Below, in pieces: positions 9,210-30,635 of a stretch of 36,466 bases of DNA; the first letter of the stretch is position 1, and each line of letters starts with the position of its first letter. The stretch covers positions 1-36,466 of IMG/VR virus record IMGVR_UViG_3300046796_000152; one strand, given 5' to 3'. Below the pieces are notes generated by a model that was not told the origin of the DNA, ran no database searches, and saw only the letters and a list, made by a program, of their open reading frames with translations. A program made the position numbers and the translations under genes. Source of the DNA: a virus.

Positions 9210-9349
9210 GACGCCACCTGCACGATCGCCGCAACCGCGATCACCAGCAGCGCCACCCCCACGGCGACGGCGAAGTTGAGCGCAGAGTCGTAGGCGCGGC
9301 GGGACGAGACGACGGGACAGTAGGTGTCGAAGGTGATGCGGTGTTTCAC
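9206..9349 (-). CDS. Small single-pass membrane protein
   Basis: A 47-residue protein from GTG 9349 (GTGA overlap). The N-terminal 18 residues after the start, KHRITFDTYCPVVSSRRA, are shared exactly with the 27-residue gene at 10122-10205. Then comes a transmembrane helix (LNFAVAVGVALLVIAVAAIV). The positive inside rule would place the N-terminus in the cytoplasm. Function unknown. Confidence 0.65.
   Translation of the reverse strand: MKHRITFDTYCPVVSSRRAYDSALNFAVAVGVALLVIAVAAIVQVAS
9293..9349. repeat. 57-bp repeat copy A (54 of 57 match 10149-10205)
   Basis: Direct repeat offset by 856 bases. The three differences (9317, 9344, 9349) are a TGT/TGC, an AAA/AAG and a GTG/ATG start change on the minus strand, all silent for the encoded peptide. 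It covers the first 19 codons of the membrane mini-protein. Confidence 0.9.
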
Positions 9350-10125: not shown

Positions 10126-10205
10126 TTCCCACCTCCCTTCCTGGCCTCGGCGCGGCGGGACGAGACGACGGGGCAGTAGGTGTCGAAGGTGATGCGGTGC
10201 TTCAT
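10122..10205 (-). CDS. 27-residue micro-gene, apparent chimera
   Basis: It starts at ATG 10205 and its stop overlaps the next GTG as GTGA; its start overlaps the previous stop. Residues 2-19 equal those of the membrane mini-protein at 9206-9349, while its end (RRAEARKGGGK) resembles the end of the product of 10321-10521 (RRAEARKP). Silent differences from copy A favour real translation. It may be a decayed paralog that only keeps coupling intact. Confidence 0.55.
   Translation of the reverse strand: MKHRITFDTYCPVVSSRRAEARKGGGK
10138..10159. repeat. 22-bp repeat, copy 1 (copy 2 at 10328-10349)
   Basis: TTCCTGGCCTCGGCGCGGCG plus GG occurs identically at 10328-10349. On the minus strand both encode RRAEARK. 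Copy 1 overlaps the right-hand part of the 57-bp repeat copy B, marking a probable recombination point. Confidence 0.85.
10149..10205. repeat. 57-bp repeat copy B
   Basis: Partner of 9293-9349, with 54 of 57 identical positions. It encodes the start of the 27-residue micro-gene. Confidence 0.9.
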
Positions 10206-11380: not shown

Positions 11381-11551
11381 TCAACCCCGGACCGCGGGGG
11401 AGGGGGCGGGCGACGACGGGAGCGGCTTGCCGTAGGCGATTGCCTCGCCCCGCTCAAGGAGGAAGCGGATGCACTCGGCCTTGCTGACGCACTCGCGCAG
11501 CGTCCGCCCGCACCGATCGCACATGATCGGGATAGTCTTCAAAACCTTCAT
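11381..11551 (-). CDS. First gene of the leftward operon, small Cys protein
   Basis: A 56-residue protein from ATG 11551, preceded by AACCAAGGGAG (11560-11570). MKVLKTIPIMCDRCGRTLRE then CVSKAEC gives a CxxC knuckle and two further Cys that probably bind zinc. The C-terminus is Pro/Ser-rich. It is the promoter-proximal gene of the leftward array, so it should be among the earliest expressed. Confidence 0.65.
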   Translation of the reverse strand: MKVLKTIPIMCDRCGRTLRECVSKAECIRFLLERGEAIAYGKPLPSSPAPSPAVRG

Positions 11552-11729
11552 GGTCTAGGCTCCCTTGGTTGACCGGCCCTTGCGGGCCACTCTCTCTCGT
11601 GGGCCACCCGGCGTATCGAGTGTCCTTCGGGCTTTCCGACCCGACAACTCAATAAGATACCCCCTCAAAACAGAAGCGCAAGGGATATTTTTAGCCCCCT
11701 ATAAAGTCCGAGTAGCTAGGCTCTTATCG
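11552..11729. other. Divergent control region
   Basis: 178 bases between the outward-facing genes at 11551 (minus) and 11730 (plus). It includes the most AT-rich stretch of the left half (about 11645-11710). The leftward leader can form GGCCC-GCAA-GGGCC and TCGGG/CCCGA hairpins. A leftward promoter is proposed at 11654-11681. A rightward TATAAA at 11700 lacks a matching upstream box. Confidence 0.6.
11654..11681 (-). promoter_or_regulatory. Putative leftward sigma70-like promoter
   Basis: On the minus strand, TTGCGC (complement of 11676-11681) and TATCTT (complement of 11654-11659) are separated by 16 bases and lie about 100 bases ahead of the first leftward gene. The match is moderate (4 of 6 in each box), supported by the AT-rich context and the divergent gene layout. 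Confidence 0.45.
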
Positions 11730-11891
11730 ATGAACAAGAACGGACGCCCGAAGCTCAGTCCCGGCATGAAGCGCACCGGCCGCGTCTACGTCTACTGCCG
11801 CCTCCAGGATCAAGGCCCCGCGCTCCGTGAGTGCCTGAGACGCGCTAGAGACGCCTACGAGCGTCGTACTCCCGTCCCGGCCGCAGGCTAG
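11730..11891 (+). CDS. Small basic protein, first rightward gene
   Basis: A 53-residue protein from ATG 11730. MNKNGRPKLSPGMKRTGRVY followed by CRLQDQGPALRECLRRARDA has a basic N-terminal arm and a helical C-terminal half. This loosely resembles small ribbon-helix-helix regulators, but the match is too weak to name. Its position at the divergence point would suit a regulator. Confidence 0.5.
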   Translation: MNKNGRPKLSPGMKRTGRVYVYCRLQDQGPALRECLRRARDAYERRTPVPAAG

Positions 11892-11903
11892 TCTCGCTTC
11901 CCC

Positions 11904-12419
11904 GTGGGCGATCCCATCACTACTCCACCGAGCGATATCACGCCGCTATCACGCGTCCGCTCGCCCACGATCCGGCTCTGCGTAGCTACCTCCCAAGACG
12001 GCTCGCCCTGTCGCGGCGCTGCCATGCGAGGGAGCGACCGCTGTAAGCACCACTCGGAACACGAGGCGAGAACCAAGGCGCAAGCTGCTGCGGATACCAT
12101 CAAGGTATCACCTCTTCCTGAACTAGTTTCCCTCGACGTGACCGATCCACTGATCCTCAAGCGCTTCCGCAAGGGGATCATGGCTCACGTCGCTCGTCAG
12201 ACGCTCGGGGTCCAGGAAGCTCGTGCTCTCCTCGACGTAGCTCTGTCCATCTACGAGAGCGAGCGTCGGGAGCGTCCCCCTACTGCCATGTCCACGCTCA
12301 CCGCGGCGCTGAGGCGAGCGATGAAATCCGAGGCGACCCCCACCGGGGAGGGGGGAGATTCGCAGCCGGGTGATGATGGGAAAGATGTTAAAGCGCGCAT
12401 TGCGACCGATCCCAAGTAG
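11904..12419 (+). CDS. Hypothetical protein with DUF5763-like Cys/His motif
   Basis: A 171-residue protein from GTG 11904; the ribosome site is weak. LCVATSQDGSPCRGAAMRGS then DRCKHHSEHE matches the C..xxGxxCxxxAxxGxxxCxxH zinc motif of DUF5763-like domains. A helical middle (GIMAHVARQTLGVQEARALL) and an acidic/Gly tail follow. A small terminase subunit is conceivable from size and position ahead of the late genes, but nothing in the motif proves it. Confidence 0.6.
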   Translation: MGDPITTPPSDITPLSRVRSPTIRLCVATSQDGSPCRGAAMRGSDRCKHHSEHEARTKAQAAADTIKVSPLPELVSLDVTDPLILKRFRKGIMAHVARQTLGVQEARALLDVALSIYESERRERPPTAMSTLTAALRRAMKSEATPTGEGGDSQPGDDGKDVKARIATDPK

Positions 12420-12424
12420 TAGTT

Positions 12425-13050
12425 CGGCTTACGCGCTCTAAGGAATGGGTCTGCTTCTTAGTAATTGGGCTCACCTAGAAGCGCGAGGACCGAAGGCCCG
12501 GAGCGGCGGGTGAGGCCGAAGGCCGAGGGGTGCAGCCCCTTCTTGAGTGGGCGCAGTGGGGCTAGTTCCGAGTCTTCCGCTTCTTGTTCATCGCAAGGAG
12601 CGTGGCTCGTACTAGATCCCCGAACATCTGGATGCCGGCCTTCGAGGTTCATCACCCGGGCTTGTTGGGGATCCCGAGTCGCTTCTCCTACGAGCTGAAG
12701 TCCCGCTCGCAGGTGACCTCGCAGTGAGGGTCGCTGTCTTCTGCGGCCCCAAGGCGGTGAGTCGTGCGGGTCACTCCCGCGCTCTCACGCTTCATCCAAC
12801 CTTCCGACTCTGTACCCGAATCCTCGGGCCTCGAAGCCGGTTTCCGGGGGACGGCTTGTCTCGGGTGAGGGTCCGTTCCGGGCACCTAGGCCGGTGCACT
12901 TGCTGGAACGGGGCGAGACTGTAACCTCGCGGACCGTTCTTCGCTCGCAACGAGAACGATGCCCTGAGCAGGACCCCGCGTCAAGTGGGCCTCCACGACC
13001 TCGGAGCATAATCTGACCCCACCCCTCATCCGGTGGGGTCGGGTTGTTTT
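12425..13050 (+). ncRNA. Candidate large structured noncoding RNA ending in an intrinsic terminator
   Basis: About 600 bases with no convincing gene and many complementary arms. Examples: CGCGCT/AGCGCG (12432-12437, 12480-12485) enclosing CTAAGGA/TTCTTAG (12438-12444, 12455-12461); GGCC-GAA-GGCC (12514-12524); AGGGG/CCCCT (12526-12540); GTGAG/CTCAC around GCGGG/CCCGC (12757-12788); ACCCGA/TCGGGT (12814-12819, 12861-12866) around AAGCCG/CGGCTT (12834-12839, 12852-12857); a tight three-way junction GGTC/GACC (12870-12873, 12932-12935) holding CGTTCC/GGAACG (12874-12879, 12905-12910) and GCGAG/CTCGC (12913-12917, 12926-12930); GTTC-TCG/CGA-GAAC (12936-12957); GTGG/CCAC (12985-12996). A terminator follows at 13015-13051. 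Large ornate RNAs such as GOLLD and ROOL occur in phages; I cannot assign this one to them. The 5' end is undefined. Confidence 0.5.
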
Positions 13051-13051
13051 T
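13015..13051 (+). terminator. Intrinsic terminator 1
   Basis: GACCCCACC (13015-13023) pairs perfectly with GGTGGGGTC (13032-13040) around an 8-base loop, followed by GGG and then TTGTTTTT (13044-13051). It ends the structured region. Confidence 0.8.
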
Positions 13052-13079
13052 GGGAAGGTCCGGTGGTAGACCTCTTCCC
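13052..13079 (+). other. Hairpin between the two terminators
   Basis: GGGAAGGTC (13052-13060) pairs with GACCTCTTCCC (13069-13079) with a two-base bulge. It begins directly after the T-tract of terminator 1. Confidence 0.5.
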
Positions 13080-13120
13080 GTTCGACGCATCTCCTCCTTC
13101 GGTTTGTGCACTGATCGCCC

Positions 13121-13165
13121 GAGCCTCCCGGTTCCCCATCACCGCCACCGGGAGGCTCTCTTTTT
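13121..13165 (+). terminator. Intrinsic terminator 2
   Basis: GAGCCTCCCGG (13121-13131) pairs perfectly over 11 bp with CCGGGAGGCTC (13148-13158), followed by TCTTTTT (13159-13165). It insulates the virion operon, which starts at 13213, from upstream transcription. A promoter for that operon should lie within or after this point, but no clear one was found. Confidence 0.85.
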
Positions 13166-13212
13166 GACCCAGAGGGCGCTACTCTTCCCCGCCATCTCAG
13201 GGAGGGCGCCAA

Positions 13213-13971
13213 GTGGCGGATGTCCAGACGGGTGGCTGCATCGACTTGGGCGAGATGCGGCACTACCGCAACATCGAACCCATCTACTTCGGCCTCTGCG
13301 ATCCGACCACCGGGGTCGGCTATGCCGGAGGCGTGATCGGCACCAACATCCAGGCGACCGTCTATCTCCCGGACGGCACCACCCACGACAAGCACACCTC
13401 GGCTCCTGCTGGCACGCTCACCCTCGGGGGCAATAACTACTACCGTCTCGTGCTCTGGGGCGAGGAACAGACCGGCGGCCACGACAAGGATCTCTCTCAG
13501 GTCGGAACCTGCGGGCTTCTGATCGAGCCGGTGGCGAACGAGTTCTTCCCGCTCTTCATGCAGTACCACGTCCGCCCCGACCTCGATACGCAGATGGCCG
13601 TCACCTACGTCCCCGGTCCGAGCAACACCTCACTGATCTCGGGATGTATCTCGATCCACCGTTGGTGGGATCACAACTTCCTCGACTTCCCCCTCACGGC
13701 CACGGGCGCTTCCGGCGGTCGCACCACCGTCATCACCAACCTCTCCGTCAAGATCACCGACAAGGATTCCACCAGCAATATCGTCAGTCTGAGCGGGCTT
13801 GCGACGGCGGGCGGCGACTTCAGCGAGAACGCCTTCGACGGGAACGTCTACTTCACCAAGGCCATCACCGGCATCACGGGCGCCCGCGTGCTGACGGCCC
13901 ACCTCGCGTTCACCTACTCGGGCTACAACTACCACAAGGACTTCGTGATTCCTTCCCGCTTCGGAGCGTGA
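13213..13971 (+). CDS. Hypothetical virion-associated protein
   Basis: A 252-residue protein from GTG 13213 with GGGAGGG seven bases upstream. The N-terminus (RHYRNIEPIYFGLCDPTTG, then TNIQATVYLPDGTTH) and the C-terminus (TTVITNLSVKITDKDSTSN, ARVLTAHLAFTYSGYNY) look like two beta-sandwich domains. It is first in the virion operon and followed at once by the glycoside-hydrolase-like gene, so a tail or baseplate role, perhaps attaching that protein, is possible. No family is recognised. Confidence 0.6.
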   Translation: MADVQTGGCIDLGEMRHYRNIEPIYFGLCDPTTGVGYAGGVIGTNIQATVYLPDGTTHDKHTSAPAGTLTLGGNNYYRLVLWGEEQTGGHDKDLSQVGTCGLLIEPVANEFFPLFMQYHVRPDLDTQMAVTYVPGPSNTSLISGCISIHRWWDHNFLDFPLTATGASGGRTTVITNLSVKITDKDSTSNIVSLSGLATAGGDFSENAFDGNVYFTKAITGITGARVLTAHLAFTYSGYNYHKDFVIPSRFGA

Positions 13972-16900: not shown

Positions 16901-16984
16901 TTGACGCCCACCGTGATCGACTCCTCACTCAAGCTGATCGCGACGTGGCGCAAGGGCAACCGGCAGCAGGGTCAGCTTCAGTGA
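13973..16984 (+). CDS. Large glycoside-hydrolase-like protein (DUF6259-like)
   Basis: A 1003-residue protein from GTG 13973. The N-terminal 280 residues are a beta-sandwich of the galactose-mutarotase type (IEWTNREWSLWQAILF, GQEVGGIDFLNVTITLEL). The middle resembles a TIM-barrel hydrolase: WWDIANHYKQRLEE (about 305-320), then NQLYFDVFTEP with Asp at about 613, HPLGGGAWYVQAQKDYIQSL (about 648-667) and TSCEDIDETM with Glu at about 688. A C-terminal beta domain (about 880-990) closes it. This order is what I know from DUF6259/GH-D-like proteins, where the strand-end Asp and Glu are catalytic. No signal peptide. A virion-borne depolymerase acting on host glycans is the best guess; substrate unknown. 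It overlaps TerL by GTGA. Confidence 0.6.
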   Translation: MVELDNPGCCELFLRIPVDHDNFQSHSVLFKPSDGLPYTLDNGNVRFNFRRDQIGGFHLDSFERLNVTATQIEWTNREWSLWQAILFHTIPSNSLDTSLLLPQARFMNPPVQVGNTLTLSWIGQEVGGIDFLNVTITLELRTGEDWLRASGSFGWQGTPTNYALDSTSVLPLRIAPQDRGSDFAVIPCVFGVLSEDPIQHLRYNPENGQARTTFGNHVRNLWNYPSGRGYNMGFWGYYTSVTNECWMGWTEQWDLTQQTICFQSDGENMILENFVTCEDNVQVGNNGRTIETVDWCVGALLATQDHAWWDIANHYKQRLEEVQPSWLVPQRPYREDLSDTEKGPFLFLDVVHSIYTGTTAFLPSFVQKARTAMGVGAEVPSFLILESGTANTLYPHETETGDARTTFSDLRAINCFAGQWRPGFIGPQVWDAHNFTGNDLRWWTTAQALGALRASRTSALTHDAYLRLSEGPEHRFYEEQNYPIVSWNAGSKVLTITGDPTSDPLFTGFMSAILIPASTSARLATATIVSIASGSLTVSTNFLDILGNVVVPTNADTVEIITAAAGAVDNADIPGNGSYCPHAQIHSASYLAKHLEDSIGAAVEISSVNQLYFDVFTEPITKQPLSYWITCYRDHTGWAAIDGGYTQHPLGGGAWYVQAQKDYIQSLRDAGRDRQQTVMGQKAFLTSCEDIDETMHGVMDYCWHTVASGDLFRVTDGLDPSIDKYKAIPLYAVVHAGRTFGRSLNHEFSSVMTATTSPIALPTPPKEDTLLHRTMAYYLGSEWVYGLTVPTLSFWADNTNGGSALDLFNDTLYVSAGGSVYDEVKNIRDLWVQMNTAEVTWIQQWLRYGEFLPPASVDFDGTDWTTGYADSFYTGQYVSYDVLYERDQYPNIVHAVWRSQTDGSVLVLFTNWTAFTSAWSGTISLDSLNLGRRASTFRAKMLDFRGDDTGEEVDFDPTTGGLSLIGMAPFSVSAVLLTPTVIDSSLKLIATWRKGNRQQGQLQ

Positions 16985-19244: not shown

Positions 19245-19895
19245 ATGACTTCCACGGATCGACTCACTTGGAGAGATGTCGAGGCGGACCCGAAACTCCT
19301 CATGGATTGGCAGAGCCAGGATTGGCTCCTGGAGAAGTCGATCCTCTGCTACGACTACCAGAAGAAGAAGGCGAAGGAGTGCCCGAAGCCACTGCTCAAC
19401 GCCGCCTGCGGACCCGACCCGGCGGGCATCGGGGCGATGGGGGCGACCAACCTCGACATCCAATCGGTCGACGCGATCACGAAGACCCCGAACGACAAGC
19501 TGCCGAACTTCACCCACGGCACCGTCTTCGACATGCCCTTCTCGGACGAGGCATTCGCCTCGGTCATGCTCGGGGAGTTCTTGGAGCACTGCACGGAGGA
19601 GCGCGCCCGCGCGGCACTCAAGGAAGTCCGCCGCGTGCTTTTCCCCAAGGGGACGCTCATCGTGACGGTGCCCCTCGATGGGCGTCCTTTCTACGAGCAG
19701 AGCGTGATGAACCCCGGCGACAAGCACGGCGAGTACTGCCCCGGCGTCACGAACTACCACCAGACTTGGTGGAGTAACCGGATGCTAGACTCCCTCGCCT
19801 ACGACTCCGGCTTCGAGGAGGTCGAGCGTTCCGTCCTGATCTACCCCATGACCGCCCCCATCACCGGATGGGGGCTTCTGTGGCGTAAAGTTTGA
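19245..19895 (+). CDS. Class I SAM-dependent methyltransferase, copy 2
   Basis: A 216-residue protein. ATG 19245 has AAAGGA eight bases upstream; an ATG at 19236 is an alternative. It aligns with copy 1 throughout: LLNAACGPDP versus ILNAACGPDP, DMPFSDEAFASVMLGEFLEHC-type core, VPLDGRPFYEQ versus FPLDARPYDEQ, and YHQTWWS versus HHQTYWS. The shared HQTxWS and terminal GWG motifs suggest the same kind of acceptor. The stop overlaps the portal start as TTGA. Confidence 0.82.
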   Translation: MTSTDRLTWRDVEADPKLLMDWQSQDWLLEKSILCYDYQKKKAKECPKPLLNAACGPDPAGIGAMGATNLDIQSVDAITKTPNDKLPNFTHGTVFDMPFSDEAFASVMLGEFLEHCTEERARAALKEVRRVLFPKGTLIVTVPLDGRPFYEQSVMNPGDKHGEYCPGVTNYHQTWWSNRMLDSLAYDSGFEEVERSVLIYPMTAPITGWGLLWRKV

Positions 19896-23100: not shown

Positions 23101-23922
23101 ATGCCCGACATGATCTCACCGGATCTCACGAACGCTCCCGCGCCTGCGGTAGCGACCCCGGCGACGCCGGGAGCGGTGGGCTCCGAGCCTGTCAAGCAGG
23201 GCGGCAACCAGGACGCCGCGTTTCGTCGTCTGACGCAGAAGGCTCAGGCGTTCGAATCAGAAGTCCATGAGCTTCGAGAGCGGCTTGCCCGCGTCGAAGG
23301 TGCTCAGTCCGGTCCGGCCCCGACCCCCTCACCTCAGAAGACTTCCACCGGACGGTGGGAGGATCTGAGTGACCAGCAGCTTGACCAAGCCATCAGCATC
23401 GGCGTCACCGACTCGAACCCGGCGGCTCTCACCGCTGCGATCAACGAGAAGGTCGCCCGTGCGTCGGCCAAGGCGGCTGAAGCGGCCCGAGGCGTCGGCT
23501 CTCGCGAGTATCAGCAGGCGAAGTACGCCGACACCGTCAAGGCGAAGATCCAGACGGAGTTCGGTCAGGATGCGATCAACCCCGAAAGCGCGCTCTTCCA
23601 AGCCGCAGACCGCTACTTCTCGCAAGAGATCCAGCGGCTCGGCAAGGACCGCGTGCTTTCGGATCCGTCGTTCCAGTACAACGCTTTCTTGAAGGCCGAC
23701 CGAGAACTCCACGTTGGCGAGCGTGACCGTCTGGTCGAGGCGCAGCGAGAAGTCGATCGCTTGAAGCGCCAGATGGCCCTCGAACACGGAGGAGTTCACC
23801 CTGGAGTGCCACGTTCGCAGGAGTCTGCTGACGCACTCGCCAAGGGTGACCTCAACGGCGCCATCCGAGGTCTTGGCCTCTTCAAGAGCGTCCAAGCGGA
23901 TGTGAAGAAGCGCTACAGCTAA
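23101..23922 (+). CDS. Scaffolding protein
   Basis: A 273-residue protein with AAAGGA upstream of ATG 23101. It has a Pro/Ala-rich start, a coiled-coil (FRRLTQKAQAFESEVHELRE, RLARVEG), a long helical middle and a basic C-terminal end (VQADVKKRYS). This highly helical, charged profile immediately before the major capsid gene is typical of phage scaffolds, whose C-terminal helices bind the capsid protein. No protease domain is seen. Confidence 0.78.
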   Translation: MPDMISPDLTNAPAPAVATPATPGAVGSEPVKQGGNQDAAFRRLTQKAQAFESEVHELRERLARVEGAQSGPAPTPSPQKTSTGRWEDLSDQQLDQAISIGVTDSNPAALTAAINEKVARASAKAAEAARGVGSREYQQAKYADTVKAKIQTEFGQDAINPESALFQAADRYFSQEIQRLGKDRVLSDPSFQYNAFLKADRELHVGERDRLVEAQREVDRLKRQMALEHGGVHPGVPRSQESADALAKGDLNGAIRGLGLFKSVQADVKKRYS

Positions 23923-23938: not shown

Positions 23939-24901
23939 ATGGGAGCATCCGACGCATCAGGTGGTGGTAATCCACTAGCTGGTTGGCAGTACGGTGACGT
24001 TTCCGTTGCGGAAGACGTTTCCGAGATCATCTACCAGATCACCCCGACCGACACCCCGGTCTACAACTCGATCGGCGACACCCGATCCTCGCACATCTAC
24101 CACCAGTGGCAGACCCGTTCTCTGTCCACTCGTTCGCAGACGAACGCTCAACTCGAAGGCTTCACCTACACGTTCACGGCGCAGTTGAACACGCCGGACG
24201 CGCGCCGGGTGAACTACACGCAGATTTTCAACAAGCGTGTCCGTGTGACCGAGACGGAAGGTGCCGTTCGCCACTACGCGATCGACGACGCCTTCCAGGA
24301 CCAGATGTTGATGCGCATGGCCGAGATCAAGACGGACATCGAGACGACCATCGTGCTCGGCACGCTCGTCTCGGGCGTCACCGGCACGGCGCAGCAGCTT
24401 CAGGGCGTCATCAACGCGATCGTCTCCGCGCAGTCCACGTTCAGTCAGCATGGCGCGGTCACGACCTCTCTAACGGAAGCCCTGTTCAACGACGCCATCC
24501 AGGTCTGCTGGCAGTTGGGCGGCAAGCCGAAGGATTGGTACGCGAACGGCAACATGAAGCGCCGGATCAGCGTCTTTGCGTCCAACTCGACCAAGTACAT
24601 CGCGGCCGAGGCGCAGAAGACGGTCAACACGATCAGCGTCTATCAGTCGGACTTCTTCGTCGTCAACATGCACCTGAGCCGTGACGTTCCCGCGTTCAAG
24701 GCGGGCACGATCTTCAGCGCGGTGACGGCGAACTCGCTGCTCGGCCTCGACACGACCATGATGCGTAAGGCGTGGTTGCGTCCGCTGACTGCGGAGCGGG
24801 TGCCGAAGACGGCGGACTCGTACGACGGTGTCATCAAGGCGGAAGCGACGTTGGAGTACGGGCACCCGAACGCCCACTTCTACATCGCCGGCTCCTACTG
24901 A
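23939..24901 (+). CDS. Major capsid protein (DUF5309-like)
   Basis: A 320-residue protein with AAAAGGAAG upstream of ATG 23939. AEDVSEIIYQITPTDTPVYN followed by HQWQTRSLSTRSQ, LEGFTYTF and FNKRVRVTETEGAVRHYAID matches the DUF5309 capsid group (SU10-like podoviruses), an HK97-fold branch. DIETTIVLGTLVSGVTGTAQ would be the spine region. It follows the scaffold, and codon use is regular. No decoration protein is identified with certainty. Confidence 0.87.
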   Translation: MGASDASGGGNPLAGWQYGDVSVAEDVSEIIYQITPTDTPVYNSIGDTRSSHIYHQWQTRSLSTRSQTNAQLEGFTYTFTAQLNTPDARRVNYTQIFNKRVRVTETEGAVRHYAIDDAFQDQMLMRMAEIKTDIETTIVLGTLVSGVTGTAQQLQGVINAIVSAQSTFSQHGAVTTSLTEALFNDAIQVCWQLGGKPKDWYANGNMKRRISVFASNSTKYIAAEAQKTVNTISVYQSDFFVVNMHLSRDVPAFKAGTIFSAVTANSLLGLDTTMMRKAWLRPLTAERVPKTADSYDGVIKAEATLEYGHPNAHFYIAGSY

Positions 24902-24910
24902 GAGACACCG

Positions 24911-25240
24911 ATGCCGGGCGAGATCGTCGCACCCGTGAGGTTCTCGATCCGGCAAGCGCGGCTTGAAGGGGCCGTGGTCGACCTGATCCGCAGGTGGGCC
25001 ACGGCCTTTCCGCACGAACTCGTCGCGCTCGACAAGATGGTGAAGGGCATCCGCCGCGAGACGGATGGGGTGAGTGACCACGGGATGTACATGGCCGAGA
25101 TCCCGGTCACGCTCGATGAGATGCTGAAAGCGAAGATTTCGCGGACTTGGTCACAGCGGCCCGAGATACGGAATCTCGTGCTGAGGAACTTCCGGGTCGG
25201 TTGCATCAACCTGAGTGCGGTGGAGGTACGAGGTGAGTGA
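24911..25240 (+). CDS. Hypothetical protein downstream of capsid
   Basis: A 109-residue protein from ATG 24911. It is helical with many Arg (FSIRQARLEGAVVDLIRRWA; EMLKAKISRTWSQRPEIRNL). A head-completion role is possible from position, but no family is recognised. It overlaps the glycosyltransferase gene by 8 bases. Confidence 0.6.
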   Translation: MPGEIVAPVRFSIRQARLEGAVVDLIRRWATAFPHELVALDKMVKGIRRETDGVSDHGMYMAEIPVTLDEMLKAKISRTWSQRPEIRNLVLRNFRVGCINLSAVEVRGE

Positions 25241-27659
25241 CGAGCCGAAGTACACGTTGGCGATCATCGCTAGGAACTGTGCCGAGCAGTTGGACCGACT
25301 GCTGACGAGCTACGGCAAGTACCCCGACGAGATCGTGGTCGTCAACACGGCGGCGTCCCCCTCCGAGATCGGGTTCGAAGAGACGAACGCGGTGGCGTTG
25401 AAGCACTTCGCCAAGGTGCACCACCACCCGTGGTCGGATGACTTCTCGGACGCCCGCAACTACTCCTTCGAGCTTGCGGCGCACCCGTGGGTCATGTGGC
25501 TCGACACCGATGATGTGGTCGAGAACCCCGAGGACGCGGATCGAAACATCCGGTTCGCCATCGGCACGGGCACGGTCAACTGCATCGTGATGGAGTACCT
25601 CTACGAGTTCGACGCGGCGGGCAACTGCACGCTAATGCTCGACCGCGAGCGGGTGGTCAAGAAGGACGAGTTCGAGTGGCGCGCGCCCGTGCACGAGGTG
25701 CTCTGCGCCATGACCTCGCTCAAGGGCACGAAGCTGCCGGCCGAACTCGGTCGCGTGATCCACGACAAGAGGGTGGAGGACACCGACTCGCGCACCAGGT
25801 CGCTGCGCCGCAACCGGAAGATCTTCCACGCCGCCTTCGAGAAGACGGGGATCGACCCCGGCATTCGGATGCTCTTCTACTGGGGCAACACCGAACTTGG
25901 GCTCGGCAACCTCCAAGGCGCGATCGACAAGTACTCCGAGTACATGGACCGCTCGAACCGGGAGGGCAAGGCGAATCCCGGCGAGCAGTACATCGCCCTG
26001 TGGTCCATGAGCGAAGCCTTCCGGCAGCAGAAGAACTACCAAGACGCCTTCGAGGCGGCGGGGCGGGCCATCCTGCTCATGCCGCAGACGCCGACCGCCT
26101 ACGTCCACGCCGCTCAGGCGCTCCTCGGGATGAACGACTACGAGCGCGTGCTGCTCTACTGCGAGCAGGCGAAGGAGAAGGTCAAGAACCTCAAGGGCGA
26201 GATGGTGTCGAGCCCTCGCGCCGTGATGGGGCTTCCCGACCTTCTGATCGCGCAGGTCTTCTGCGTCAAGGGTGAGTGGCAGCGCGCGATCCCCCACATC
26301 GAGGCGGCGCGCCCCTACTTCAGCGACACCCGAGAGCTTTCCGAGATCGACGAGTGGTGCAAGTCCATGTGCGAGCACCAACTCGACAAGGACGCCTTCC
26401 AGCGCATCGCTGACAAGATGTGGCGGGAGAAGAAGTACCGAGCCGTCCACGCGCTCGCGATCAACGCCCCCGGCAACCTCCCCGACACGGGCGAGGTAGC
26501 CCGACTGATCCCGAAGAAGCGCCCGGCGGATAGGAAGTCCATCGCCTTCATCTGCGGCGACAACTTCTTCGGGGTGCACTGGGGTCCGTGGTCGATCAAG
26601 AGCGGGATCGGCGGCAGCGAGGAAGCGGTCATCAACGCCGCCCGCGAGTTCGTGAAAGCGGGGTGGCACGTCGAGGTCTACTGCGCGCTCGGGAAGAAGC
26701 GCAGCGAGAGCCCGGTGATCGCGGATGGAGTCGAGTACTGGCCGATTCACTGTTGGACCGGGGAGTACGACAACCCGCTCGACGTGATCGTGTGGTGGAG
26801 GGCTCCGCGCGCCGTCGAGGTCGTGGCGCACCGCTCGGCGCTGAACTACGCATGGATGCACGACATCCACGTTCCGGGCTCATGGGGCGAGAAGACCCAC
26901 GAGGTCTACGACGGCGTGTTCCTGCTCTCGGACTACCACCGGAAGCTCCATTCCTTCCTTCCCGACGACAAGGTGATCCTGACGGAGAACGGACTCGATC
27001 CCGACCTCTTCGTCCCGATCGAGAAGTTCACGAACGAGCCGCACCGGATGATCTACGGCTCGGATCCTTGCCGGGGCTTCCAGTACATCCTCCCTCACTG
27101 GAAGCGGATCCGCGAGGAAGTGCCCGACGCCGAGATCCACGTCTTCTACGGCTGGTCGCGGCACTTCATGGAATCGACCAAGAGCAACCCGGAGCACAAG
27201 CGGATCTACGAGTACGTCGAGGCGAACCGAAACCAGGACGGGATCCACTGGCGCGGCAAGGTGGGTCAAGAGCAACTCGCCAAGGAGTACGCGAAGAGCG
27301 GGATCTGGGGGTATCCGACCACTTTCCCGGAGATCCACTGCATCACCGCTCTCAAGGCACAGGCGCATGGCTGCACCCCGATCGTGACCGATGACTTCGC
27401 GCTCAGTCAGACGGTCAAGTTCGGGAAGAAGCTCCCCGGTCCCATGACGGACCCGGAGAGGATCAAGAACTGGGTCGACGAGGTGATCTTCCAGATGAAG
27501 CACCCGCAGTCCCGAGGTGAGCGCCTGGAGATGGCAACATGGGCGAGGACGCATACCTGGGCGGCAGTCGTCCGGGGGTGGTTGGGACACTTCGAGAAGC
27601 ACTTGGCGTTGAAGCCCCCGGTCGGGACGGCCTCGTTGACTTTGACACCGACGAACTAG
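25233..27659 (+). CDS. Two-domain glycosyltransferase (GT2-TPR-GT4 fusion)
   Basis: An 808-residue protein from GTG 25233 with GGAGG six bases upstream. Residues 1-180 are a GT2-like (GT-A) domain: YTLAIIARNCAEQLDRLLTS, SDDFSDARNYS and WLDTDDVV with DxD at 91-94. Residues about 205-400 contain TPR-like helical repeats (GIRMLFYWGNTELGLGNLQG, GEQYIALWSMSEAFRQQKNY, AYVHAAQALLGMNDYERVLL). Residues about 435-800 are a GT4-like (GT-B) domain: SGIGGSEEAV (about 458), LTENGLDPDLF (about 585), YGSDPCRGF and FPEIHCITALKAQAHGCTPI with the Glu of the EX7E region. It probably adds two sugars in sequence. Acceptor and donors are unknown. Such a fusion inside a virion operon is unusual. Confidence 0.85.
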   Translation: MSDEPKYTLAIIARNCAEQLDRLLTSYGKYPDEIVVVNTAASPSEIGFEETNAVALKHFAKVHHHPWSDDFSDARNYSFELAAHPWVMWLDTDDVVENPEDADRNIRFAIGTGTVNCIVMEYLYEFDAAGNCTLMLDRERVVKKDEFEWRAPVHEVLCAMTSLKGTKLPAELGRVIHDKRVEDTDSRTRSLRRNRKIFHAAFEKTGIDPGIRMLFYWGNTELGLGNLQGAIDKYSEYMDRSNREGKANPGEQYIALWSMSEAFRQQKNYQDAFEAAGRAILLMPQTPTAYVHAAQALLGMNDYERVLLYCEQAKEKVKNLKGEMVSSPRAVMGLPDLLIAQVFCVKGEWQRAIPHIEAARPYFSDTRELSEIDEWCKSMCEHQLDKDAFQRIADKMWREKKYRAVHALAINAPGNLPDTGEVARLIPKKRPADRKSIAFICGDNFFGVHWGPWSIKSGIGGSEEAVINAAREFVKAGWHVEVYCALGKKRSESPVIADGVEYWPIHCWTGEYDNPLDVIVWWRAPRAVEVVAHRSALNYAWMHDIHVPGSWGEKTHEVYDGVFLLSDYHRKLHSFLPDDKVILTENGLDPDLFVPIEKFTNEPHRMIYGSDPCRGFQYILPHWKRIREEVPDAEIHVFYGWSRHFMESTKSNPEHKRIYEYVEANRNQDGIHWRGKVGQEQLAKEYAKSGIWGYPTTFPEIHCITALKAQAHGCTPIVTDDFALSQTVKFGKKLPGPMTDPERIKNWVDEVIFQMKHPQSRGERLEMATWARTHTWAAVVRGWLGHFEKHLALKPPVGTASLTLTPTN

Positions 27660-28161: not shown

Positions 28162-28692
28162 GTGAGCGAGCACAACGGGGGCGATCTTCAGATCCAGGTC
28201 ACTGGGGAGGAGCACAACCACGAAGCCCTCGCCAAGCGGGTTGTTCTGACCCTGCTCAACCTCGCTGGAACCGCCTACCGCTCTCCGAACGTGCTCGAAG
28301 GAACCGATGGGAACGCGCTCATGGTGTCACTCGGAGATCCGACGACCGGCGGCCCCATCACGATCAAGAACCCGAAGGATCTCGCGGACGGAAAGCTCTC
28401 GACCGTGCTCACCGCGCTCTACTCGGTCCCGACCTCGAAGAAGGCGTGGCTCACGAAGATGCGCTTCCGCAACGCGGGAGTCGCGGTTCGCACGCTGACG
28501 GTCAAGTTTGTGGCAGCGAGCGGGGGCACGGCTCGGAGCATCTGGCCCGACGTTCCCCTTGACCCCGGCGAGTCCACCGACCTGATCGCGGGTGAGGATC
28601 TGCTCGGACTCTCGGCGGGCAACGTGATCGAGGCGAGTCAGGATGCCGGGACGGACATCGACTACGTCCTCTCCGGCGAAGAGCTTTCGTGA
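28162..28692 (+). CDS. Probable structural protein upstream of fibre
   Basis: A 176-residue protein from GTG 28162. After a polar N-terminus it looks like a beta-sandwich (TVLTALYSVPTSKKAWLTKM, AGVAVRTLTVKFVAASGGTA, DPGESTDLIAGEDLLGLSAG), a pattern seen in small phage tail or decoration proteins. GTGA coupling to the fibre gene suggests that the two are assembled together. No family is recognised. Confidence 0.65.
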   Translation: MSEHNGGDLQIQVTGEEHNHEALAKRVVLTLLNLAGTAYRSPNVLEGTDGNALMVSLGDPTTGGPITIKNPKDLADGKLSTVLTALYSVPTSKKAWLTKMRFRNAGVAVRTLTVKFVAASGGTARSIWPDVPLDPGESTDLIAGEDLLGLSAGNVIEASQDAGTDIDYVLSGEELS

Positions 28693-30635
28693 AGGTCTAT
28701 AACGCGAGTGGCCTAGAGAAGATCATCCCCGGCGGTGGTGGCGGGGCGGACGGGTACAACATCATCTCGGCCGGCACGACCAAGGCGGCAACCACCGGCA
28801 CGGTCGTCTTCTCGAACAGCAACAACGTCTCGTTCGGGATGTCCGGGCAGACCGTCACGGCGACCGTCACGGTCCCGGCTCAGAGCAATCAGACGCTCGG
28901 GCTGCAAGCCTTCACGAACACGACCGCGGTGTCCTCGTCCACGACGATCGACGCACGGACGATGTGCTTCATCGGCATGGGCGGCCTCTCGGTCGGCTAC
29001 AGCGCCGGCTCGATCGTGCTCTCAGGAGCGTCAGGGGGTGGTGGCGCGGACGGCGTGAACATCATCGCAGCCGGCACGCGCACGGCCACGACGAATGGCA
29101 CCATCCTCTTCAGCAACGCGAATAGCGTCACCTTCGGGCTGAACGCGGTCAACGGCTCGGTCATCACCGCATCGATCTCGACCCTTCCAGAGACACCCTT
29201 CGCCGTACGGGCTGGTGCGTTGTCCTTCTCCAGCGGAACCGTCTCGTTCTCCAACTTGAACAACGTCAGCTTCGGGATGAATGCGGCGAGCGTGATTACC
29301 GCCTCATTCTCGACGGCGGCTCAGAGTGCTCAGACGCAGAGCTTGATCCAGGCGATCTACGACGGCGCAAGCAGCATCACCACCGGCACGGTCCAGTTCA
29401 GCAACTCCAACGGGGTGAGCTTCGGGATCAGTGGTCAGACGATGACCGCTTCCGTGGCGACGAGTCTGACGAACGTGAACGTCAGCGCGGGCACGACGAG
29501 CGCGAACCTTTCGAACTTCGTTCTCTCGAACTCGAACAGCGTCTCCTTCGGATTGAGCGGATCCACGATCACAGCCTCGATCTCGACGCTCCCTGAAACA
29601 CCGTTTGCGATCCGGGCCGGAGTCTCGTCGTTCTCTAGCGGGACCGTCTCGTTCTCCAACGCGAACAGCATCAGCTTCGGGATGAACTCCGCGAGCGTCA
29701 TCACCGCATCCTTCTCGGTGGCGACGAGCCTTACCGCAGTCAACATCAGCGCCGGGACCACGAGTGCTAACCTCTCGAACTGGACGTGGTCGAACTCGAA
29801 TGGCGTGTCCTTCGGATTGAGCGCATCGACGCTGACCGCCTCGATCGCAACGAGTCTCACCGCGATCAACGTGAGCGCGGGTACCACGAGCGGGAACCTC
29901 TCGAACATCACGTTCTCGAACGGAAGCGGGGTCAGCTTCGGGCTGAGCGCCTCCACGATCACAGCGTCAGTTTCCACGATGCCGATGATGTCGAACTTCT
30001 GGAACACCCCGGAAGGCGTCATCACGATCGCCGCCACCAAGCACGCCAACAGCAGCGTGAGCGTTCTTCCGTTCATCGTCAACAACGCTCTCGCGTTTTC
30101 AAACCTCCGCGTCTTCGTGTCCGTCAGTCTCGCGTCTGCGGCTAACAACTCATCCGCCCAGAACAGCCTCTCCGCATCGGTGGTGCTCTACACGAGGAAC
30201 GTCAGCACCCTCTCCTCGATCTGGTCCGGGAGTTACGGAACCGCCGTGACGTGGTCCTCCAGCAACACCTCGGTGTTCGCGGGGAACCGTCAGCTTTCGA
30301 TCTCTGGGTTGGCGACCACGCTGATGCCGGGAGACTATTGGGCGGCCCTGCACATCTCCTCGAATACGGGCGCCAACACGGGAGCGGCGACGACGAGCCT
30401 CGGGTGTAGCTACTCGCTCAACGTCCTACCCGGTGGCGCTTCGGGCGCGCTGGCGGCGGATCCTTGGGATGGCGGTGGCAGCAACGCCTCGCGCGTGGCC
30501 TTCCCCGGGCTCGGCATCTACAGCACGAATGGAACGATGCCGACGATCCAACTCACGGATGCTGCGCTCAGTCAGACGAGCATCGCAAGCAACGCGAACG
30601 TGGTCATGAACCTGAGAAACTGGAGCATCTTCTAG
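28689..30635 (+). CDS. Repeat-built tail fibre / receptor-binding protein
   Basis: A 648-residue protein from GTG 28689. The N-terminus has GGGGGADGYNIISAGTT, repeated as GGGGADGVNIIAAGT near residue 115. Residues about 37-428 contain eight clear copies of a roughly 20-residue beta unit with core SNxNxVSFG and end ITAS, and a twice-used LPETPFA(V/I)RAG link. Residues about 430-648 are a unique C-terminal domain (FWNTPEGVITIAATKHANSS and on), probably the receptor-binding tip. The protein is very rich in Ser, Thr, Asn and Ala. Repeats of this type are common in fibres of uncultured phages. It is followed directly by a glycosyltransferase gene, which makes it a candidate glycoprotein. Confidence 0.85.
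   Translation: MKVYNASGLEKIIPGGGGGADGYNIISAGTTKAATTGTVVFSNSNNVSFGMSGQTVTATVTVPAQSNQTLGLQAFTNTTAVSSSTTIDARTMCFIGMGGLSVGYSAGSIVLSGASGGGGADGVNIIAAGTRTATTNGTILFSNANSVTFGLNAVNGSVITASISTLPETPFAVRAGALSFSSGTVSFSNLNNVSFGMNAASVITASFSTAAQSAQTQSLIQAIYDGASSITTGTVQFSNSNGVSFGISGQTMTASVATSLTNVNVSAGTTSANLSNFVLSNSNSVSFGLSGSTITASISTLPETPFAIRAGVSSFSSGTVSFSNANSISFGMNSASVITASFSVATSLTAVNISAGTTSANLSNWTWSNSNGVSFGLSASTLTASIATSLTAINVSAGTTSGNLSNITFSNGSGVSFGLSASTITASVSTMPMMSNFWNTPEGVITIAATKHANSSVSVLPFIVNNALAFSNLRVFVSVSLASAANNSSAQNSLSASVVLYTRNVSTLSSIWSGSYGTAVTWSSSNTSVFAGNRQLSISGLATTLMPGDYWAALHISSNTGANTGAATTSLGCSYSLNVLPGGASGALAADPWDGGGSNASRVAFPGLGIYSTNGTMPTIQLTDAALSQTSIASNANVVMNLRNWSIF
28798..29970 (+). repeat. Degenerate tandem repeats coding the fibre shaft
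   Basis: Eight recognisable copies of the SNxNxVSFG...TAS coding unit, with variable spacing. Copies 3 to 8 are also similar at base level (for example AACAGCGTCTCCTTCGG variants), which would allow copy-number change by recombination. Confidence 0.8.

What the first reader, a model, noticed from the sequence alone, without database searches (positions are those of the whole stretch)
12425..13050. Candidate new large structured RNA ahead of the virion operon
About 600 bases without a credible gene hold at least ten helices of 4 to 7 bp. They include a tight three-way junction (GGTC/GACC enclosing CGTTCC/GGAACG and GCGAG/CTCGC, 12870-12935) and a closed multi-helix domain at 12432-12485. The stretch ends in a perfect intrinsic terminator. 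Non-coding phage stretches of this size are rare. Known large phage RNAs (GOLLD, ROOL) and packaging RNA show that such elements exist, but I cannot match this to one.
Basis: partly seen in the sequence, partly recalled or inferred. Interest (0 to 1): 0.78.

Follow-up and report, generated by a model that had tools for sequence, protein, structure and literature searches.

The report
Orphan folded non-coding stretch in phage
A phage genome carries about 600 bases with no gene that, read in one direction, fold into an unusually stable and well-defined RNA ending at two stop-transcription signals just before the virion genes; no relative of it could be found, so it is a good candidate for an unknown regulatory RNA but not a proven one.

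Summary
The stretch is real and non-coding. Between the stop codon of a weakly terminase-small-subunit-like gene (to 12419) and the first gene ahead of the terminase (13213) lie 793 bases with no coding signal. Ten or more short helices are no more than chance gives. What does exceed chance is the + strand fold: with the terminator left out it is more stable than 60 of 60 shuffles (z -3.2) and far better defined (15 confident helices against 6.1 +/- 3.2), while the - strand shows much less. The named three-way junction is in the sequence (0.5% of shuffles hold one), but its closing helix has alternatives. Two tandem rightward terminators follow, not one. No Rfam family, phage record, plasmid or viral contig tested matches, and no close relative covers the locus, so covariation, the decisive test, could not be run. 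Distant relatives have other non-coding stretches at the same early/late junction; two share one small covarying hairpin element unrelated to the window's. Best reading: a structured 3'UTR/leader RNA that gates virion transcription (inferred). A separate large phage RNA, a packaging site or mere chance remain open. Filed as a plausible singleton candidate, not a new class.

The parts
11904..12419 (+). 171-aa ORF directly upstream; a C...G..C...G..C..H motif, weakly like a terminase small subunit
   Evidence: PHROG 10899 'terminase small subunit' E 0.17, phrog_3678 E 0.0033; position upstream of TerL at 16981. Weak; also read as gene 12024-12419 by the self-trained caller.
12420..13050 (+). non-coding stretch predicted to fold into one multi-domain RNA, from the upstream stop codon to the first terminator
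   Evidence: z -5.55 with terminator, -3.2 without; positional entropy 0.51 vs 1.02 +/- 0.25 in shuffles.
12424..12493 (+). 5' domain: TCGG/CCGA, CGCGCT/AGCGCG, TGGGTCT/GGGCTCA
   Evidence: pair probabilities 0.89-0.96
12494..12992 (+). closing helices AGGCCCG/TGGGCCT and GCGGG/CCCGC that would hold the body together
   Evidence: mean pair probability 0.86 and 0.71
12558..12620 (+). long imperfect hairpin (CTAGT/ACTAG, CGAGTC/GGCTCG, CGCTTCTTGT/GCAAGGAGCG)
   Evidence: mean pair probability 0.99 for its three main helices
12627..12848 (+). central domain: imperfect helix of about 19 bp 12627-12647/12829-12848 enclosing a multi-branched loop with hairpins at 12691-12709, 12728-12749, 12757-12788
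   Evidence: mean pair probabilities 0.90-1.00
13008..13051 (+). intrinsic terminator 1 (16 bp with G-U pairs, then TTTT)
   Evidence: (I4)
13121..13165 (+). intrinsic terminator 2 (12 bp perfect stem GAGCCTCCCGGT/ACCGGGAGGCTC, then TCTTTTT)
   Evidence: I5
13213..13971 (+). first gene after the stretch (252 aa, unknown), GTG start with GGGAGGG ahead of it
   Evidence: codon score 99; ribosome site read

Best explanation
A rightward transcript that starts upstream (probably in the A+T-rich divergent region at about 11,640-11,730, before the terminase-small-subunit-like gene) runs through 12420-13050, folds into a compact multi-domain RNA, and is stopped at tandem intrinsic terminators before the virion operon at 13213. 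The RNA then acts in cis as a structured 3'UTR/leader that gates virion transcription: the late genes are made only when polymerase is let through the two terminators, by a phage antiterminator protein or by the RNA itself. Shown: no gene, strand-specific stable and well-defined predicted fold, two rightward terminators, no sigma-70-like promoter between them and the virion genes. Inferred: that it is transcribed, and that it gates the late operon.
For: Non-coding. + strand MFE lower than 60 of 60 shuffles without the terminator, entropy likewise; - strand much weaker. Fifteen helices of 5 bp or more with mean P >= 0.9 against 6.1 +/- 3.2, reached by 1 of 80 shuffles. Of 60 tiled 590-base + strand windows the most stable relative to shuffles is 12631-13220 at z -4.3, though this window includes both terminators. 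The fold fits between the stop codon and terminator 1. Two rightward terminators and no sigma-70-like promoter on the + strand in 11500-13230 even with relaxed rules.
Against: No homolog, hence no covariation. The stability excess is moderate (z about -3 to -4); two coding windows in the same genome reach -3.8. No transcript data. The host is unknown, so promoters of another type would be missed, both upstream and just before 13213. No antiterminator was identified.
Confidence: 0.35

Rival explanations
1. A free-standing, abundant large non-coding RNA acting in trans (what GOLLD and ROOL look like), released by termination at 13050 and perhaps by processing at the upstream stop codon.
For: Size of about 630 nt, multi-domain fold with confident long-range helices, own terminator; phages are known to make such RNAs (PMC12286853, PMC9241854).
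Against: No Rfam match to GOLLD, ROOL, OLE or any other family; no tRNA in the window, whereas GOLLD and ROOL often lie near tRNA islands; no own promoter found.
Confidence: 0.25
2. Chance: a neutral intergenic spacer in a G+C-rich phage whose predicted fold is at the tail of the distribution.
For: Helix number is exactly chance level; coding windows at 23431 and 24631 reach z -3.8; no conservation can be shown.
Against: Strand asymmetry and low entropy beyond nearly all shuffles; 630 bases of unused DNA is a lot for a phage (general knowledge).
Confidence: 0.25
3. A DNA-level element such as a packaging (pac/cos) site recognised by the adjacent terminase small subunit.
For: Sits beside a gene with weak terminase-small-subunit similarity and upstream of TerL.
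Against: A DNA element of inverted repeats should fold alike on both strands; here the + strand is clearly favoured. No direct-repeat array: only 10-11 base two-copy repeats.
Confidence: 0.12

Closest known systems
GOLLD and ROOL RNAs (large ornate phage RNAs)
   Same: Size class, phage location, multi-domain predicted fold.
   Different: No Rfam match at gathering or at E <= 10; no tRNA nearby; no relatives, whereas those are broad families.
Late-operon leader with terminator and antitermination (lambda pR'/tR' with Q; put RNA of HK022; from general knowledge)
   Same: Non-coding rightward stretch that ends in terminator(s) directly before virion genes.
   Different: Much longer than the lambda leader; no antiterminator, qut- or put-like site was identified or tested.
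Non-coding stretch at the early/late junction in L031 and L066 (distant TerL relatives, about 25% identity)
   Same: 700-800 nt, no gene, strong fold, at the start of the rightward genes; a shared hairpin element with 6 pairs changed on both sides.
   Different: Lies upstream of the first rightward gene, not after it; folds about equally on both strands; no sequence or model match to the window.
phi29 packaging RNA
   Same: Phage non-coding RNA.
   Different: Not matched in Rfam; the window has a phrog_2-type large terminase.

Membership tests
GOLLD / ROOL / any Rfam family | match to the family's covariance model | tested here: not met
   no match at gathering threshold in the whole window; in 12300-13250 at E <= 10 only three sub-threshold matches, none to these families
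GOLLD / ROOL | location often near tRNA islands | tested here: not met
   no tRNA or tmRNA in the 36,466 bases; the paper describes this as frequent, not obligatory
New structured RNA family | homologs with compensatory base changes | not testable with these tools
New structured RNA family | fold more stable and better defined than shuffled sequence | tested here: met
Antiterminated late-operon leader | terminator(s) between promoter and late genes | tested here: met
   two rightward terminators; the promoter itself was not found
Antiterminated late-operon leader | readthrough dependent on an antiterminator | not testable with these tools
   needs transcription assays
Packaging site | binding sites for the small terminase or mapped genome end | tested here: inconclusive
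   no repeat array; the ends of this contig are assembly ends
Group I or group II intron | Rfam intron models | tested here: not met

The most novel reading that the evidence does not exclude
The junction between early and late genes in this broad lineage of environmental phages carries fast-evolving large structured RNAs (the window's, and a separate one shared by L031 and L066) that control the late switch, and none belongs to a described family.
Probability: 0.2. Interest if true: 0.7.

Novelty: new member of a known kind. Interest (0 to 1): 0.38.

Why it matters
If it is a functional RNA it would add a large structured phage RNA outside all Rfam families, placed where phages switch to making virions, and would give a system in which the role of such RNAs (unknown for GOLLD and ROOL) could be tested. 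As it stands it is a single-sequence prediction.

Tried and rejected
Coding gene or frameshifted remnant: rejected on codon score, GC by position, stops and lack of family matches. Known RNA family, tRNA or intron: rejected. Homologs by blastn in phages and plasmids, by junction or hairpin patterns in viral contigs, through the flanking proteins and through TerL or the capsid protein: only L002 is close (98%), but it begins at window 16985 and misses the locus. blastn, nhmmer and covariance models against the 80-odd distant relatives found nothing; the models were built from one sequence each, so they are weak probes. Excess of helices as evidence: rejected, chance level. Using the high fold z-scores of the relatives' gaps as strong support: toned down, because 14% of control windows in the same loci also fall below -4 (only 12 shuffles each).

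Full report
Setting. The window is a 36,466-base viral contig with no end overlap. Codon-position composition and codon scores show mainly leftward genes from 1 to about 11,551 (including an Erf-like annealing protein and a single-strand-binding protein) and rightward genes from about 11,900 on: the 171-aa ORF 11904-12419, then 252-aa and 1003-aa unknowns, large terminase at 16981, portal at 19892 and major head protein at 23939. The stretch in question, 12420-13212, lies in the rightward arm between the 171-aa ORF and the 252-aa gene.

Is it non-coding? Yes, as far as sequence can tell. No ORF inside scores above 7.2 on a codon model trained on this genome, against 99 and 353 for the two genes that follow (these two were in the training set). 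GC content is flat over the three codon positions, and the ORFs crossing it match no Pfam or PHROG family. Its GC content (0.64) equals the genome's.

Is it structured? The count of helices is not informative: 27 of 4 bp or more against 26.7 in shuffles. Stability is: z -5.55 with the terminator and -3.2 without, with -4.35 for 12560-12960 (this sub-range was chosen after seeing the fold). Among 60 tiled windows of 590 bases the lowest z, -4.3, is 12631-13220, which includes both terminators; two coding windows reach -3.8. In 150-base windows the stretch does not stand out (lowest -2.86 at 12901), so the signal is in the long-range pairing. Definition is also unusual: mean positional entropy 0.51 against 1.02 +/- 0.25, lower than 60 of 60 shuffles, and 15 confident helices against 6.1 +/- 3.2. 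The opposite strand gives z -1.4 and ordinary entropy. These tests agree with an RNA read rightward, but they come from one sequence.

Anatomy. The predicted fold starts just after the upstream stop codon with a small domain (12424-12493), is closed by 12494-12510/12975-12992, and holds a long hairpin (12558-12620), a central domain on an imperfect 19-bp helix (12627-12647/12829-12848) with three hairpins inside, and the three-way-junction domain (12855-12954). The junction's two inner helices are stable in the full fold; the outer GGTC/GACC helix competes with alternatives. A loop pairing of GUCCC 12700-12704 with GGGAC 12848-12852 is possible by eye and untested. Terminator 1 (13008-13051) and terminator 2 (13121-13165) both point rightward. 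No sigma-70-like promoter was found on the + strand in 11500-13230.

Relatives. blastn finds nothing in 50,697 phage and 72,556 plasmid records. The only close relative, L002 (98% in TerL), starts at window 16985. Flanking proteins have no relatives in viral or genome contigs by the pattern scans; those scans need exact 8-residue matches, so more distant relatives may have been missed. A three-sequence TerL alignment brought 80 loci, all but L002 at 24-33% identity; none holds the window's RNA by blastn, nhmmer or covariance model. Many have non-coding stretches of 350 nt or more at their own early/late junction, eight of them with z at or below about -4, but control windows in the same loci do so in 14% of cases. 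Two of them, L031 and L066, share an element GAGAGAGAUUG..GCAUGGAU-hairpin-AGACCUGC whose hairpin keeps pairing through 6 changes on both sides (the structure was derived from the same two sequences) and which no Rfam model matches. That element is absent from the window, so it supports only the general idea that this junction can carry structured RNA.

Mechanism. The best-supported reading is a structured 3'UTR/leader RNA ahead of tandem terminators that gates virion transcription. The fold and the terminators are shown as predictions; transcription and gating are inferred. A trans-acting large RNA is a close second. A packaging site is less likely because the strands differ. Chance cannot be excluded without homologs.

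Verdict. Observation partly confirmed, interpretation partly supported, interest moderate.

Noticed in passing
L031:3480-3606 and L066:731-825: Two distant phages share a hairpin element (GAGAGAGAUUG..GCAUGGAU-hairpin-AGACCUGC) at the early/late junction; the hairpin keeps pairing through 6 double-sided changes and has no Rfam match. Also shared downstream: AGCGTAGCGGGGGACCCGT and paired TAGTATACC repeats.
   Followed up: partly
L050:864-979: Non-coding junction stretch with a 19-bp perfect inverted repeat TGACACGCAGTTCTGCCAC and many TGACA/TGTCA words; strong fold on both strands.
   Followed up: no
window 9293-9348 and 10149-10204: 56-base repeat (96% identical) in the leftward gene region; a further 23-base exact repeat at 10137 and 10327.
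   Followed up: no
window 28734-29968: Internally repetitive region of the 648-aa ORF 28689-30635, probably a repeat-built virion protein.
   Followed up: no
window 25233-27659: Large protein with glycosyltransferase-like parts shortly after the capsid gene; a similar gene stands there in MW202718.
   Followed up: no
window 12978-12988 and 13206-13216: 11-base near-repeat GCG(T/C)CAAGTGG, one copy in the 3' strand of the RNA's closing region, one across the GTG start of the next gene; may be chance.
   Followed up: no
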